Part shown: piece by piece, positions 10,916 to 15,822 of the stretch | How positions within the stretch are numbered: position 1 is the first letter of the stretch | Layout: each line of letters begins with the position of its first letter | NCBI RefSeq assembly: GCF_005938655.1 | Contig: NZ_VCQT01000046.1 | Coordinates: 248,001 to 312,000 of the forward strand | Direction of reading: 5' to 3' | From: Alloalcanivorax gelatiniphagus | GTDB taxonomy: Bacteria; Pseudomonadota; Gammaproteobacteria; Pseudomonadales; Alcanivoracaceae | Length of the DNA stretch: 64,000 bases | The notes under the pieces: model-generated | What the model was told of the DNA's origin: nothing | The model's database searches: none | Seen by the model: the letters and a program-made list of their open reading frames with translations, nothing else | Translations under genes and position numbers: made by a program

Positions 10916-10959
10916 CCAGAGCACAGAATAGCGCCTCCCAACTCTTTGTGGAGCATTCC

Positions 10960-12378
10960 ATGGCGTCCCCCCCTCGCGCCGGCGTACCCGGCCTGCCGGT
11001 GTTGCTGCTCGGCGGCTTCGTCACCATCTTCGATCTGTTCGTGGTCAATGTGGCCATTCCCAGCCTGCAGCGGGATCTGGACGCCAGCTTCGCCCAGATC
11101 GGTTTCGTGCTGGCCGGCTACGAGCTGGCCTTCGGCGCTCTCCTGATCACCGGCGGCCGGCTCGGCGACCGCTTCGGCCGGCGCCGGCTTTATCTGCTCG
11201 GCATGGCGCTGTTCACCCTGGCTTCCCTGTGGTGTGGCCTGGCCGGTTCCGCCACCGGGCTGATCGTGGCGCGTTTCTTCCAGGGCGCCGCCGCCGCCCT
11301 GCTGTTTCCACAGATTTATGCCTGCCTGCGGGTGCTGTACGCGCCGGAGGCCCAGCGTCGGGCGTTCGCCTGGCTGGGCATGACCCTCGGGCTGGCGGCC
11401 ATCGCCGGCCAGGTGGTGGGCGGCGCCCTGGTGCATCTGGATGTGGCCGGGCTGGGCTGGCGCACCGTGTTCCTGGTGAATCTGCCCATCGGCCTGGTGA
11501 CGCTGCTGCTGGGCGGGCGCATCGCGGAAACCCGGCTGGCGGACAAGCCGTCCCTGGACGGCGCCGGTCTGCTGTTGGCCGCCACCGGCCTGACCCTGTT
11601 ACTGGTGGCGCTGCTGGAAGGGCCGTCCCATCATTGGCCGGCCTGGTCCTGGGCGTTGCTGCTGGCGGCCGGCCTGTTGTTGGCGGCCTTCGTGCGCCAG
11701 CAGGCCGGGCGCGGCCGCCAGGGCCGGATGCCGCTGGTGGACATGGCGCTGATGCGCCAGCCTGCCTTCGCCCTGGGCTGCCTGTTGGTGATGCTGGTCT
11801 ATTCCACCTCCAGTTCCTTTTTCCTGAGCTTCGCGCTGCTGGTGCAAACCGGACTGGGCCTGGACCCGCTCCAGGCCGGCCTGCTGTTCGCGCCGGCCAG
11901 CGCCGCCTTCATGGCCTCCTCGCTGCTGGCGGCGCGCTGGGTGGCGCGGGCCGGCACACGGGTGCTGGTGGCCGGCGCCGCTTTCTATGCCCTGGCGCTG
12001 GCGGCCATGGTGGCGCAGATCGGGCTGAGCGGGGCCGGCGGCCCGTCAGCCTGGTGGGTGCCGGTGCTGATGCTGGTGGGGTTCGGTCAGGGGCTGGTGA
12101 TGACGCCGCTGCTCAATCAGGTGCTGGGAGTGGTGGCGCCGGATCGGGCCGGCATGGCCTCCGGCGTGGTGGCCACCCTGCAACAGGTGGGCGCGGCCCT
12201 GGGGGTGTGCGTGATGGGCATCCTGTTCATGGGCGGCCTGCGCGACGCCGGCGGGCTGGATCCGGCGACCGCCCATGTGCGGGCGTTCGTGGCGGCCATG
12301 CTCTATAACGTGGTGGCGGCGGCGTTGTGTTGCGCGCTGCTGTGGGTGCTGCGCCGGTGGCAGCAGCCGGCCCGGTGA
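10960..12378 (+). CDS. MFS exporter, DHA2 (14-TM) family
   Basis: A 472-residue drug:H+ antiporter-2 type carrier. TM1 carries FVTIFDLFVVNVAIPSLQRD, the family motif D1 (D/NxxIVNVALP type). The conserved MFS loop motif follows (GGRLGDRFGRRRLYLLGM), and motif C-like glycine/proline residues are present near AIAGQVVGGALVHL. The ATG at 10960 is preceded by GTGGAG at a good ribosome-binding distance; a GTG at 10948 is in frame but less well placed. It is divergent from the MmyB-like regulator. The substrate is not evident. Its stop faces that of the MORN/C13 gene with a 4-bp gap, and I see no intervening terminator. Confidence 0.9.
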   Translation: MASPPRAGVPGLPVLLLGGFVTIFDLFVVNVAIPSLQRDLDASFAQIGFVLAGYELAFGALLITGGRLGDRFGRRRLYLLGMALFTLASLWCGLAGSATGLIVARFFQGAAAALLFPQIYACLRVLYAPEAQRRAFAWLGMTLGLAAIAGQVVGGALVHLDVAGLGWRTVFLVNLPIGLVTLLLGGRIAETRLADKPSLDGAGLLLAATGLTLLLVALLEGPSHHWPAWSWALLLAAGLLLAAFVRQQAGRGRQGRMPLVDMALMRQPAFALGCLLVMLVYSTSSSFFLSFALLVQTGLGLDPLQAGLLFAPASAAFMASSLLAARWVARAGTRVLVAGAAFYALALAAMVAQIGLSGAGGPSAWWVPVLMLVGFGQGLVMTPLLNQVLGVVAPDRAGMASGVVATLQQVGAALGVCVMGILFMGGLRDAGGLDPATAHVRAFVAAMLYNVVAAALCCALLWVLRRWQQPAR

Positions 12379-12382
12379 ACCG

Positions 12383-13867
12383 CTACCACCAGTCCAGGAA
12401 CGCCGGCCCCAGGGACATGCGGGGCCGCGAGCGTTGCCCGTCCTCGATGCCCTGCTCCGTCTCCATGGCCTCCACCCGGGCGCGGGCCGCTTCGAACAGT
12501 GCCGCCGGATCGTCCAGGCCCTGACTGTCCAGGGCCTCGCCATAGAGCGCCTCGCTGAACCAGGTGCGTTCCGAGTCGTCACCGCAGCCGAAGGAGGTGC
12601 GGTCGCCGGCGGCGGCGGTGAAGATCAGCCGGCGACGGTCCGCCAGGGGTTCGATCCACTGGCCGGAGTAGCAGGCCGACACCACCAGCCACAGATAACG
12701 GGGACGCATGGCGTCGAGCCAGCCGTGCAGGTCCGCCGGGGTCAGGTCATTGAGGCGCAGGCCCGGCTGGTTGAGCACCAGCTCGCCATCGCGGCCACCG
12801 TGGCTGACCAGATGCACGAAGATCAGATCCTCGCGGGGATCGGCGATGCTATCCAGCGCGGTCAGCGCCTCGTGCACACTGGTGCGGGTGGCCAGCGGCA
12901 AACCACCGTGGTCACCGTTGGCCAGGGTCAGCAGGTGGCCCCGTGGGTCCCAGTGGGCGCCCAGGCGTTCCGCCACCCATTGCACTTCGCGGGTGAACAC
13001 CGTCTGGCGGCCGTCGCCGCCCACCAGCAGCACATAGATATCCCGCTGGCCACGCTTTTGCGGCAATAACGCCGTCAGCGCCCGCTGCAGCCGTCGTTCC
13101 TCGGAATAGAGCCGCTGCTCCACGTGCTCGGCGCGCTGCCGGCGGCGTTGCTGGTAGCCGTCCGGTTCGGAGAAAAATTCGCCGTGGGAGAAAAATCCCT
13201 GTTCGGTGGTTTCCTTGCCGTCCGCATTGACGGTAATGCGCCGGCCCGGGCCATCCAGAACGCCCTGCTGGAAATGGCCCCGGCGGCGTTCGCCGTCGGC
13301 CAGGAACAATTCCCCCTCGCCCTGGAAAAAGCCGTCCTGGAAGCCACCGTGGTAAACCCGCTCGCCGTCGTACAGATAGTCGCCCTGGACGATTTCACCG
13401 TCGGCGAAGGTGCCCCGGTAAACGCCGCCCTCGGCGCCGGTCCAGGTGCCTTCACCGTGGGGTTGCCAGTGGCGCAGCGCGCCCTGGTAAATGTCGCCCT
13501 GGTCGTACTCCACCCGGCCCTGTACCGGTTCGCCGCCGGCGAAGGTGCCCTGGTAAACCATGCCCTGGCAGACATAGCGGCCCTCGCCCTCCGGCAGGCC
13601 GGCGACGAACTGGCCTTCATAGACGCAGCCGTCCGGGTCCTTGAGGCGGCCGTCGCCCTGCATCAGGCCATCCACGAACTGGCCTTGGTAGCGCCGGCCG
13701 TTGGGCCAGGTCAGCGTGCCCTGGCCGTGGAAAAGCTGATCGCGGCGTTCACCGTCGTAAACGGCGCCGTCGGGCAACCGGTAGTCGCCGGGCAGTTGCT
13801 CCGGCCCGCAGGCGGCCAGCAGCACGGCACCGTAGCACAGCAGAGCGGCAAGCAAAGGGCGTGGCAT
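12383..13867 (-). CDS. Lipoprotein with MORN repeats fused to a peptidase C13 (legumain/caspase-like) domain
   Basis: A 494-residue two-part protein. A lipoprotein signal ends in VLLAAC (Cys20). Residues 35-210 hold about seven or eight MORN-type repeats (NGRRYQGQFVDGLMQGDGRL; CVYEGQFVAGLPEGEGRY). A charged helical linker follows near 240-265. Residues 275-494 resemble clan CD cysteine peptidases of family C13: beta-strand plus catalytic His in LIFVHLVSHGGRDGELVL (His356) and catalytic Cys in YLWLVVSACYSGQW (Cys399). Eukaryotic C13 members are legumain and GPI transamidase; bacterial relatives are poorly characterised. It ends an apparent operon yhdP-nitrilase-tldD-CNBD-this gene, with only 9 bp after the CNBD gene. 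The periplasmic or outer-membrane substrate is unknown. Confidence 0.82.
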   Translation of the reverse strand: MPRPLLAALLCYGAVLLAACGPEQLPGDYRLPDGAVYDGERRDQLFHGQGTLTWPNGRRYQGQFVDGLMQGDGRLKDPDGCVYEGQFVAGLPEGEGRYVCQGMVYQGTFAGGEPVQGRVEYDQGDIYQGALRHWQPHGEGTWTGAEGGVYRGTFADGEIVQGDYLYDGERVYHGGFQDGFFQGEGELFLADGERRRGHFQQGVLDGPGRRITVNADGKETTEQGFFSHGEFFSEPDGYQQRRRQRAEHVEQRLYSEERRLQRALTALLPQKRGQRDIYVLLVGGDGRQTVFTREVQWVAERLGAHWDPRGHLLTLANGDHGGLPLATRTSVHEALTALDSIADPREDLIFVHLVSHGGRDGELVLNQPGLRLNDLTPADLHGWLDAMRPRYLWLVVSACYSGQWIEPLADRRRLIFTAAAGDRTSFGCGDDSERTWFSEALYGEALDSQGLDDPAALFEAARARVEAMETEQGIEDGQRSRPRMSLGPAFLDWW

Positions 13868-13876
13868 GGAAGTCCT

Positions 13877-14338
13877 CTAGGGCAACATGAAGCGGGCCAG
13901 CCGCGAGGAAGTCTGGCGCAGGTTCTCGCACAGCAGGCGGGCGATGTTTTCCATCATCAGCGCGGCGGCATGGGGCTGCCGCCGGCGCAATTGTTCGAAG
14001 CCCTTACGGGTCAGCACCACCAGGGTGGTGTCCTCGGCGGCCCGTACCGTGGCCGAGCGCGGCTGGTGGTCCACCAGCGCCATTTCGCCGAGGGAGTCGC
14101 CGGGGGTCAGGTGGGCGATCACCGCCGCGCCGCCGTCCTCGCCCTGGGCCTTGAGAATATCCAGGCGGCCGCGCACCACGAAACAGACAAAATCGCTGCG
14201 GTCGCCTTCCCGGCACACCGTGTCGCCGGCCGCCACCCGGTTGACGAACACCAGCTTCTCGGCGTCCGCCAGCTGTTCCGCGTCCAGGCCGTTGAACAGG
14301 CGCATGCGCGCCAGCACTTCGGCCACCGCCACGCTCAT
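13877..14338 (-). CDS. Small stand-alone cyclic nucleotide-binding domain protein
   Basis: A 153-residue protein that is almost entirely one Crp/PKA-type CNBD. The phosphate-binding cassette is intact: GDSLGEMALVDHQPRSATVR, with Gly84-Glu85 and Arg94. No HTH, kinase or channel domain is attached, so it probably acts as an adaptor or sensor. The start ATG at 14338 overlaps the tldD stop (TGATG), showing tight coupling. The next gene, 9 bp on, is the MORN/C13 lipoprotein. Whether it binds cAMP or cGMP cannot be decided here. Confidence 0.85.
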   Translation of the reverse strand: MSVAVAEVLARMRLFNGLDAEQLADAEKLVFVNRVAAGDTVCREGDRSDFVCFVVRGRLDILKAQGEDGGAAVIAHLTPGDSLGEMALVDHQPRSATVRAAEDTTLVVLTRKGFEQLRRRQPHAAALMMENIARLLCENLRQTSSRLARFMLP

Positions 14339-15822
14339 CAGGCGGTGCCGCCCACCGTCAGCGCGTTGACCCGCAGGGTGGGCTGGCCCACCCCCACCGG
14401 CACCGACTGTCCGTCCTTGCCGCACACGCCGATGCCGGTGTCCAGGGCCAGGTCGTTGCCGACCATGGAGATGTTGTTCATCACTTCCACGCCGCTGCCG
14501 ATCAGGGTGGCGCCCTTCACCGGGCAGACGATTTTGCCCTTCTCCACCAGGTAGGCCTCGCTGGTGGAAAACACGAAGCGCCCGGAGGTGATGTCCACCT
14601 GGCCACCGCCGAAGTTCACCGCGTAGATGCCCCGGTCCAGGCTGGCCAGGATTTCCTCGGGCTCGGATTCGCCGGGCAGCATGTAGGTGTTGGTCATGCG
14701 CGGCATGGGCAGGTGCGCGTAGGATTCCCGGCGGCCGTTGCCGGTGGGCGCCACGCCCATCAGCCGGGCATTGGTCTTGTCCTGCATGTGTCCCACCAGG
14801 CGGCCCTTTTCGATCAGCACGTTGTAGCCGCTGGGGGTGCCCTCGTCGTCCACGTTCAGGGAACCGCGCCGGTCCGGCAGGGTGCCGTCGTCGACCACGG
14901 TGCACAGGTCCGAGGCCACCGGCTGGCCCATCTTCTTGCTGAACATGGAAGTGCCCTTGCGGTTGAAGTCCCCTTCCAGGCCATGGCCCACCGCCTCATG
15001 GAGCAGCACGCCGGGCCAGCCGGGGCCGAGCACCACCGGCATGGTGCCCGCCGGCGCCGGCTGGGCTTCCAGGTTCAGCAGCGCCTGACGCACCGCGTCC
15101 CGGGTCCAGCTCTCCAGGCGGCCGTCCTGGCGCAGCCAGTCGTAGGCCACCCGGCCACCACCGCCGGCGCTGCCGCGCTCGCGGCGGCCGTCGCGCTCGG
15201 CGATCACGGAAATACTGAAGCGGATCAGCGGGCGCACGTCGGCGGCCAGGGTGCCGTCGGTGGCGGCCACCAGCACCACATCCTGCTCGCCGCTGAGGCT
15301 GACGGTGACTTCCTTCACCGCCGGGTCCAGGGAGCGCGCCAGGCGGTCCATCTCGCACAGCAGCGCCACTTTCATTTCGCTGCTCCAGCCGGGCAGCGGG
15401 TCCAGGGCCTCATAGCGCCGGGGCACCGAGCGCGCCGGTTCGATGCGCACCGGCTTGTCACCGCCCTGGCGGCCGATGGCGGCGGCGGCGTTGCCGGCCT
15501 GCCGCAGGGTGTCCAGGGAGATGTCGTCGCTGTACGCGAAGCCGGTCTTGTCGCCACTGACGATGCGCACGCCGGCGCCCCGCTCCAGGTTGAAGCTGGC
15601 GTCGCGCACCAGGCCGTCCTCAAGCACCCAGGCTTCATGGCGGCTGTGCTGAAAATAGACGTCGGCGTAGTCGGCGCTGCCCGCCAGCTTGCCGCCCAGC
15701 AGCGTTTGCAACTGGTCGGTGCCCAGGTCGGCGGGCGCCAGCAGAATGTCGGACGCCAGGGAAAGGCGTTCGCTGTCAGAGAGCCGTTCTTGGTCAGAGA
15801 TCCGTTCTTTGTCAAAGCTCAT
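14338..15822 (-). CDS. tldD: Metalloprotease TldD
   Basis: A 494-residue TldD/PmbA family protein. The zinc motif [11 protein letters not shown] begins at His275 (HExxxH 275-280), with the third-ligand region further on ([17 protein letters not shown]). TldD and TldE (PmbA) form a heterodimeric protease that trims unfolded peptides, including microcin B17 and CcdA. No pmbA lies in this window. The N-terminus is unusual: three imperfect copies of a seven-residue unit (FDKERIS, SDQERLS, SDSERLS) precede the domain. The start overlaps the nitrilase-family gene by 11 bp. The order yhdP-nitrilase-tldD is as in Pseudomonas aeruginosa. Confidence 0.95.

What the first reader, a model, noticed from the sequence alone, without database searches (positions are those of the whole stretch)
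12383..13867. MORN repeats fused to a C13 caspase-like peptidase in a lipoprotein
The His356/Cys399 dyad in a caspase-like strand context is clear, as is the MORN region. A bacterial, membrane-anchored C13 enzyme in an operon with TldD (another protease) and a cyclic-nucleotide-binding protein hints at an envelope proteolysis or signalling module that I have not seen described.
Basis: partly seen in the sequence, partly recalled or inferred. Interest (0 to 1): 0.6.

Follow-up and report, generated by a model that had tools for sequence, protein, structure and literature searches.

The report
Membrane-anchored caspase-like protease with MORN arm
The gene encodes a real bacterial protein that joins a legumain-like (caspase-fold) protease to a repeat arm and a predicted lipid anchor; relatives are common in Pseudomonas and kin, but its substrate and job are unknown and its neighbouring genes do not explain it.

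Summary
ORF 12383-13867 (-) encodes a 494-aa predicted lipoprotein: lipobox LAAC20, about eight MORN repeats, a helix, and a C13 (legumain) peptidase domain with His356 and Cys399. The AlphaFold model is confident; the peptidase half matches human legumain (Z 22) and the repeat half MORN1 structures. The dyad is kept in the 30 best homologues and in 16 Pfam-selected relatives. Selection is purifying. The proposed module with TldD and the cyclic-nucleotide-binding protein is not supported: that linkage is in 9 of 80 related loci, all Alcanivorax or Alloalcanivorax, and of 16 family genomes with the CNBD-tldD pair, 9 have C13 behind it, 6 do not and 1 is unreadable. In Pseudomonas the gene sits elsewhere. 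Asn/Asp specificity cannot be assumed: the place of legumain's S1 Asp231 is Arg or Lys in 43 of 80 relatives. Best reading: a membrane-tethered periplasmic cysteine peptidase for envelope upkeep. A MORN-less Acinetobacter relative, probably Abrp, is reported to affect membrane permeability. Activity and substrate are untested.

The parts
12383..13867 (-). MORN-C13 lipoprotein gene, 494 aa
13873..13876 (-). AGGA, ribosome-binding-site-like motif 5 nt before the ATG
   Evidence: read from sequence
13808..13867 (-). residues 1-20: signal peptide ending in lipobox LAA-Cys20
   Evidence: sequence; Cys20 column is C in 68 of 80 rows of A4
13172..13768 (-). residues 34-232: MORN array, about 8 repeats spaced 22-23 aa
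   Evidence: Pfam MORN; beta hairpins in model; motif register
13073..13159 (-). residues 237-265: helix joining MORN array to peptidase
   Evidence: AlphaFold model
12386..13063 (-). residues 269-494: C13 caspase-like peptidase domain
   Evidence: Pfam C13 341-475; aligned to legumain over 269-494, Z 22
12800..12802 (-). codon of catalytic-type His356
12671..12673 (-). codon of catalytic-type Cys399 (SACYSG)
13877..14338 (-). neighbour: cyclic-nucleotide-binding-domain protein; not part of a conserved module with C13
   Evidence: Pfam PF00027 1.9e-22
14338..15822 (-). neighbour: TldD
   Evidence: NCBIfam NF008006 4.2e-221

Best explanation
It is a membrane-tethered, periplasm-facing cysteine endopeptidase of the legumain (C13) fold. 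The lipobox cysteine (or, in some relatives, transmembrane segments) anchors it; the MORN array is a rigid arm or docking surface; the C-terminal domain cuts protein substrates in the envelope with the His356/Cys399 dyad and so helps to maintain the envelope. Shown here: gene, domains, predicted fold, conserved dyad, anchor signal, selection, distribution. Inferred: that it is catalytically active, that the domain lies in the periplasm, the role of MORN, and the envelope-maintenance role.
For: C13 and MORN matches. Confident models: pLDDT 92.0 full length, 93.6 and pTM 0.92 for the peptidase domain. Legumain Z 22.0, 199 residues, 2.3 A; plant metacaspases, plant peptide ligases and GPI transamidase about 19-21; caspase-7 about 18. 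Dyad invariant in 30 of 30 and 16 of 16. dN/dS 0.21 and 0.33. Anchoring kept by different means: lipobox pattern in 67 of 80; TM-like or polytopic N-termini in several relatives without MORN (by eye). A. baumannii has a 483-aa C13 protein with four strongly hydrophobic stretches and no MORN match; three chromosome-sized A. baumannii records hold one such place each. Reviews report that loss of the A. baumannii C13 gene abrp goes with raised membrane permeability (passages). PA4016 of P. aeruginosa, which I equate with this family by gene order, is listed in an envelope proteome table.
Against: No activity, localisation or substrate data for any MORN-C13 protein were found. That Abrp is the polytopic protein is inferred, and it lacks MORN, so its phenotype may not carry over; reviews disagree on the direction of its effect on drug susceptibility (against 68; see full report). 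Gene context differs by lineage and names no partner. A second PA4016 insertion allele did not show the C. elegans attenuation of the first. The relative position of the two domains is not firmly predicted (pTM 0.64).
Confidence: 0.55

Rival explanations
1. It is the protease of an Alcanivoracaceae signalling/proteolysis operon with TldD and the CNBD protein; the CNBD protein senses a nucleotide and controls envelope proteolysis.
For: Compact same-strand order yhdP-nit-tldD-CNBD-C13 with overlapping or touching genes; CNBD, TldD and YhdP matches on the same strand before C13 in all 9 named Alcanivorax/Alloalcanivorax loci.
Against: Of 16 genomes with the CNBD-tldD pair 6 lack C13 behind it and 1 is unreadable; 71 of 80 C13 loci show neither CNBD nor TldD in the DNA held. 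TldD and the CNBD protein show no signal sequence by eye, so they would be cytoplasmic (inference).
Confidence: 0.08
2. It is a transpeptidase or ligase (like GPI transamidase or plant asparaginyl ligases) that joins peptides or attaches proteins in the envelope rather than cutting them.
For: Structural neighbours include plant peptide ligases and GPI transamidase at Z about 19-21; the position of legumain's Glu190 'brake' is Tyr or Phe in 80 of 80 rows of A4 (brake from PMC9604545 passages).
Against: The same fold serves plain proteases with equal or higher Z; no companion subunit was noticed among the neighbours (not searched for as such).
Confidence: 0.1
3. It is a lysis or cell-death factor, as the caspase fold and the CidA/LrgA-LrgB neighbours in Pseudomonas might suggest.
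For: CidA/LrgA-type genes in 29 and LrgB-type genes in 27 of 80 loci, all from Pseudomonas or Stutzerimonas; annotated order in a P. aeruginosa record.
Against: These genes are on the other strand, were not clustered in any non-Pseudomonas locus, and are missing from some Pseudomonas loci (for example L086, L098, L106-L109). No hit of the protein to PADLOC defence models.
Confidence: 0.07
4. It is a pseudoenzyme or scaffold; the caspase domain only binds.
For: The legumain S1 Asp231 position is not kept.
Against: His and Cys are invariant across relatives down to about 25-40% identity.
Confidence: 0.1

Closest known systems
Legumain / asparaginyl endopeptidase (MEROPS C13)
   Same: Fold (Z 22), His/Cys dyad, Ser425 at the place of Ser216
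   Different: Predicted bacterial lipoprotein with MORN array; ends with the peptidase domain, so no LSAM-type C-terminal prodomain; S1 Asp231 position not conserved; Glu190 position Tyr/Phe
Abrp, C13 family protein of Acinetobacter baumannii
   Same: Same domain family: the A. baumannii C13 protein is 31.5% identical over 93% of the window's domain
   Different: No MORN match and four hydrophobic stretches before the C13 domain; that this protein is Abrp is inferred
Pseudomonas 'peptidase C13' beside ubiX-mpl (probably PA4016)
   Same: Lipobox + MORN + C13: in the P. aeruginosa record C13 E 1.2e-39, MORN E 1.1e-35
   Different: Longer (579 aa there; mostly 552-588 aa); different gene surroundings
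MORN1 proteins of protists
   Same: MORN array fold, Z about 20
   Different: The solved chains are MORN repeats without a peptidase; binding to lipid vesicles could not be shown for T. brucei MORN1 (PMC7725318, abstract start and passages)

Membership tests
Peptidase C13 / legumain | Pfam PF01650 above curated cut-off | tested here: met
   59.9 bits vs 22.8
Peptidase C13 / legumain | Caspase-like fold closest to legumain | tested here: met
   Legumains lead both lists (best Z 22.0 and 21.8); plant metacaspases follow within about 1-2 Z
Peptidase C13 / legumain | His-Gly and Ala-Cys dyad | tested here: met
Peptidase C13 / legumain | Legumain S1 pocket (Arg44, His45, Ser216, Asp231 per PMC4357240 passages) | tested here: inconclusive
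   Ser216 kept 80/80; Asp231 position D or E in 28/80, R or K in 43/80, other 9/80; Arg44/His45 not aligned residue by residue
Peptidase C13 / legumain | Asn/Asp-specific peptidase activity | not testable with these tools
   needs enzyme assay
MORN repeat protein | Several PF02493 repeats | tested here: met
   54.4 bits vs 22.5; MORN1 Z about 20
Bacterial lipoprotein | Signal peptide with lipobox Cys | tested here: met
   LAAC at 17-20; no signal-peptide program was run
Bacterial lipoprotein | Lipid modification and membrane location | not testable with these tools
   needs experiment
TldD-CNBD-C13 module | Genes kept together across lineages | tested here: not met
   9 of 80 named loci; 9 of 16 genomes with the pair, 6 without, 1 unreadable
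Known anti-phage defence protein | Match to PADLOC models | tested here: not met
   0 families at E 0.1 for P0001; the neighbouring CNBD protein matches 5 models (Pycsar-type, best 2e-15), which I take as its shared nucleotide-binding domain

The most novel reading that the evidence does not exclude
A widespread, undescribed class of lipid-anchored envelope caspases: the MORN arm senses an envelope state (lipid, peptidoglycan or a partner) and releases the C13 domain to cut a specific periplasmic protein, with P1 preference retuned between lineages (Asp versus Arg/Lys at the legumain Asp231 position), and in Pseudomonas it acts with the nearby CidA/LrgB holin-like pair in controlled lysis.
Probability: 0.07. 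Interest if true: 0.8.

Novelty: new variant of a known kind. Interest (0 to 1): 0.42.

Why it matters
Caspase-fold proteases of bacteria are mostly known as toxin parts, gingipains, clostripains or defence effectors (recalled). Here is a conserved chromosomal, probably membrane-tethered one in common Gram-negatives including Pseudomonas; the P. aeruginosa papers seen here call the probable member hypothetical or uncharacterised. If active it would be an envelope protease with unknown substrates, and the reported link between an Acinetobacter C13 gene and membrane permeability makes its role directly testable in harmless laboratory strains.

Tried and rejected
Gene context: the tldD/CNBD linkage was tested and rejected as a general module. 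A first gene call weighted by ORF length picked shadow ORFs in high-GC DNA and was replaced by a GC3-based call; cluster numbers were dropped. The first extraction of homologues mis-handled strand and was redone. L117 (runs off its contig) was left out of A4, which holds the window protein and 79 of the 80 loci. A5 holds 16 of the 29 further loci; the 13 Pseudomonas-type ones (L032-L044) were dropped. A3 holds 27 of the 30 proteins (the window's own as P0001; L028, L029 and L031 left out), A2 15. The tree holds 58 domains that I chose. Defence role: no PADLOC hit for P0001. Phage origin: the only two hits in the phage collection are Acinetobacter records at the same identity as A. baumannii, which I take for host DNA. 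Literature on a MORN-C13 protein: searches found 0 papers; others (4 listed; 10 listed of 2,755; 16 listed) showed none by title; (15 listed of 1,491) listed none holding the word MORN. These are open-access PMC texts only and the listed papers were mostly not opened. Arg44/His45 equivalence was not resolved: the printed profile alignment to legumain covers only profile positions 106-209. Gingipain does not appear among the 50 rows shown; that is no evidence that the folds differ.

Full report
What is there. The minus-strand ORF 12383-13867 encodes 494 aa. It starts with ATG 5 nt after AGGA, directly behind the stop of the upstream gene, and has coding-like GC by codon position. Pfam finds Peptidase_C13 (3.5e-16, best stretch 341-475) and MORN (6.7e-15); NCBIfam gives only a match far below cut-off to an EACC1-associated caspase model (20.2 bits, cut-off 140). 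The N-terminus reads as a lipoprotein signal peptide ending LAAC20; no signal-peptide program was available. MORN motifs recur at residues 60, 83, 105, 127, 150 and 172, with hairpins before and after, about eight repeats. dN/dS is 0.21 and 0.33 against two congeneric orthologues.

Structure. The full-length model (27 sequences) has mean pLDDT 92.0 and pTM 0.64, so the domains are well predicted and their relative position less so. The peptidase domain alone (15 sequences) has pLDDT 93.6 and pTM 0.92. Foldseek's first 28 rows are MORN-repeat structures, protist MORN1 leading; human legumain follows at rank 29 (E 3e-9). VIA-align gives legumain Z 22.0 over 199 residues at 2.3 A, spanning residues 269-494, and P. 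falciparum MORN1 Z 20.6 over residues 34-235. With the domain alone, legumains again lead (Z 21.8), plant metacaspases, peptide ligases and GPI transamidase follow at 19-21, caspase-7 at 18.

Conservation. In the 30 best-scoring loci (window included) of a search of 390 genomes of the order, His356, Gly357, Ser397, Ala398, Cys399, Ser401 and Gly402 are invariant. In A5, 16 proteins picked by the Pfam model from a sample of the phylum, the His and Cys are in all 16; these are 16 of 29 further loci, and its lower-scoring C13 matches were not examined. In A4 (window protein plus 79 of 80 named loci) both are 80 of 80, but those loci were fetched with patterns that include SACYSG or the FGC motif, so the Cys count there is partly built in.

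Specificity. PMC4357240 (passages) lists Arg44, His45, Ser216 and Asp231 as legumain S1 residues. In the printed profile alignment to legumain Ser216 falls on Ser425, 80 of 80 Ser, and Asp231 falls on position 439, which is Arg 28, Asp 24, Lys 15, Ala 6, Glu 4, Ser 2, Gln 1; in A5 it is Arg 9, Asp 3, Asn 2, His 1, Lys 1. I worked out the legumain residue numbers by counting along that alignment, and did not check them on superposed structures. The Glu190 'brake' (PMC9604545 passages) falls on Tyr 75 or Phe 5. I infer that legumain-type Asn specificity cannot be carried over.

Distribution. A C13 match occurs in 61 of 398 genomes sampled from the phylum (58 over the cut-off) and in 1 of 14 named control genomes, Caulobacter vibrioides. 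P0001 matches 136 of 390 genomes of the order; this counts MORN-only matches and is an upper bound for C13. The named scan found at least 560 relatives and kept the best 80, 43 of them from Pseudomonas or Stutzerimonas by record title. All 80 members of A4 match C13 and 77 match MORN; in A5 4 of 16 match MORN. Relatives without MORN carry a TM-like segment, a polytopic N-terminus or only a signal-like start (read by eye); the A. baumannii protein has four stretches of high hydropathy. In a quick tree of 58 chosen domains the MORN label needs 4 changes against 15.6 in shuffles, so the fusion looks old with few gains or losses; labels came from my own motif counts and one row (L133) is borderline. 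Of 7 sampled genomes in the window's genus, 3 have the gene.

Neighbours. The genes upstream are CNBD (PF00027), TldD, a nitrilase-like protein and YhdP (the last two labels recalled). CNBD and TldD lie by C13 in 9 of 80 named loci, which are the only 9 titled Alcanivorax or Alloalcanivorax; the other 71 show neither at E 1e-8 in the DNA held, some with short flanks. In 18 Alcanivoracaceae genomes TldD is in 18 and a CNBD homologue in 17; it lies next to tldD in 16 (in one it is a 37% match elsewhere). Of these 16, C13 follows in 9; in 6 it does not, and in 5 of those 6 a YjgA-like gene is seen on that side; in 1 (G109) the contig ends there. Four of the 6 have no match to P0001 anywhere in the genome, a fifth (G336) likewise, and G370 has a more distant MORN-C13 gene elsewhere. 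So C13 is an insertion into, or loss from, a block that exists without it. In Pseudomonas the gene lies elsewhere. Clusters of neighbour genes, named by the annotated order, occur among the 80 loci as: oxidoreductase 41, UbiX 35, Mpl 33, CidA/LrgA 29, LrgB 27. That P. aeruginosa record annotates DedA, LON-domain, LrgB, CidA/LrgA, MaoC, peptidase C13, oxidoreductase, YceK, ubiX, mpl, and its C13 protein has both MORN and C13. Microbulbifer, Marinobacter and betaproteobacterial loci fall into other neighbour clusters.

Literature. By recalled locus tags around mpl I take PAO1 PA4016 to be the P. aeruginosa member. PMC3406104 (passages) calls PA4016 hypothetical and most likely a single-gene unit; an insertion in a delta-exoU background attenuated nematode killing and a second allele in the wild type did not. 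PMC7835679 (one table row) lists PA4016 in a section on envelope proteomics with values 0.19 and <0.05, whose column headings I did not see. For Acinetobacter, four reviews (passages) describe abrp, a C13 family gene, after Li et al. 2016, which I have not seen. All four tie loss of the gene to higher, or its presence to lower, membrane permeability; three (63, 68, 69) tie its presence to faster or its loss to slower growth. They do not agree on drugs: say that deletion reduces susceptibility, that the wild type is the less susceptible, and links the gene with decreased susceptibility. Three chromosome-sized A. baumannii records hold one C13 place each and the protein read has C13 and no MORN, which is why I equate it with Abrp. 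MORN repeats should not be assumed to bind membranes (PMC7725318 passages).

Verdict. A real, conserved, probably active, probably membrane-anchored C13 peptidase with a MORN arm; the operon story is a local matter of gene order. The combination is visible to Pfam and annotated 'peptidase C13' in a P. aeruginosa record, but no paper on it was found. On re-checking, I corrected the genome count beside tldD (one contig end) and the account of the Abrp reviews; neither changes my odds.

Noticed in passing
L182 (CP109682.1, P. aeruginosa record labelled plasmid, 425 kb): The stretch carries a chromosomal-type block (mpl, ubiX, CidA/LrgB, C13), so the 'plasmid' may hold or be chromosomal DNA.
   Followed up: no
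CAKLQH020000046.1 and CAKLQF020000034.1 (Acinetobacter phage MD-2021a): Both hold a C13 gene at the same identity to the query as A. baumannii records (31.5%); likely host DNA in phage records.
   Followed up: no
L085 (Pedobacter MAG): Its C13 domain falls among betaproteobacterial ones in the quick tree (open fork); transfer or binning error.
   Followed up: no
window 10948-12378 (+): An MFS-type transporter gene (label recalled) lies tail to tail with C13 here, whereas most Alcanivorax relatives have YjgA- and PmbA-like genes on that side; no YjgA match in the window, and its only PmbA match is TldD itself.
   Followed up: partly
G109 C4 (L022), G370 C1, G136 C8: Some Alcanivoracaceae carry a more distant MORN-C13 gene elsewhere in the genome; G136 has both kinds.
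   Followed up: partly
Pseudomonas loci among L084-L140: CidA/LrgA- and LrgB-type genes lie divergently two and three genes from C13, in 29 and 27 of 43 Pseudomonas/Stutzerimonas loci.
   Followed up: partly
window 13877-14338 (-): The small CNBD protein has no output domain and sits beside tldD in 16 of 18 Alcanivoracaceae genomes; a TldD-CNBD link, apart from C13, may deserve its own look. It also matches 5 Pycsar-type PADLOC models.
   Followed up: partly
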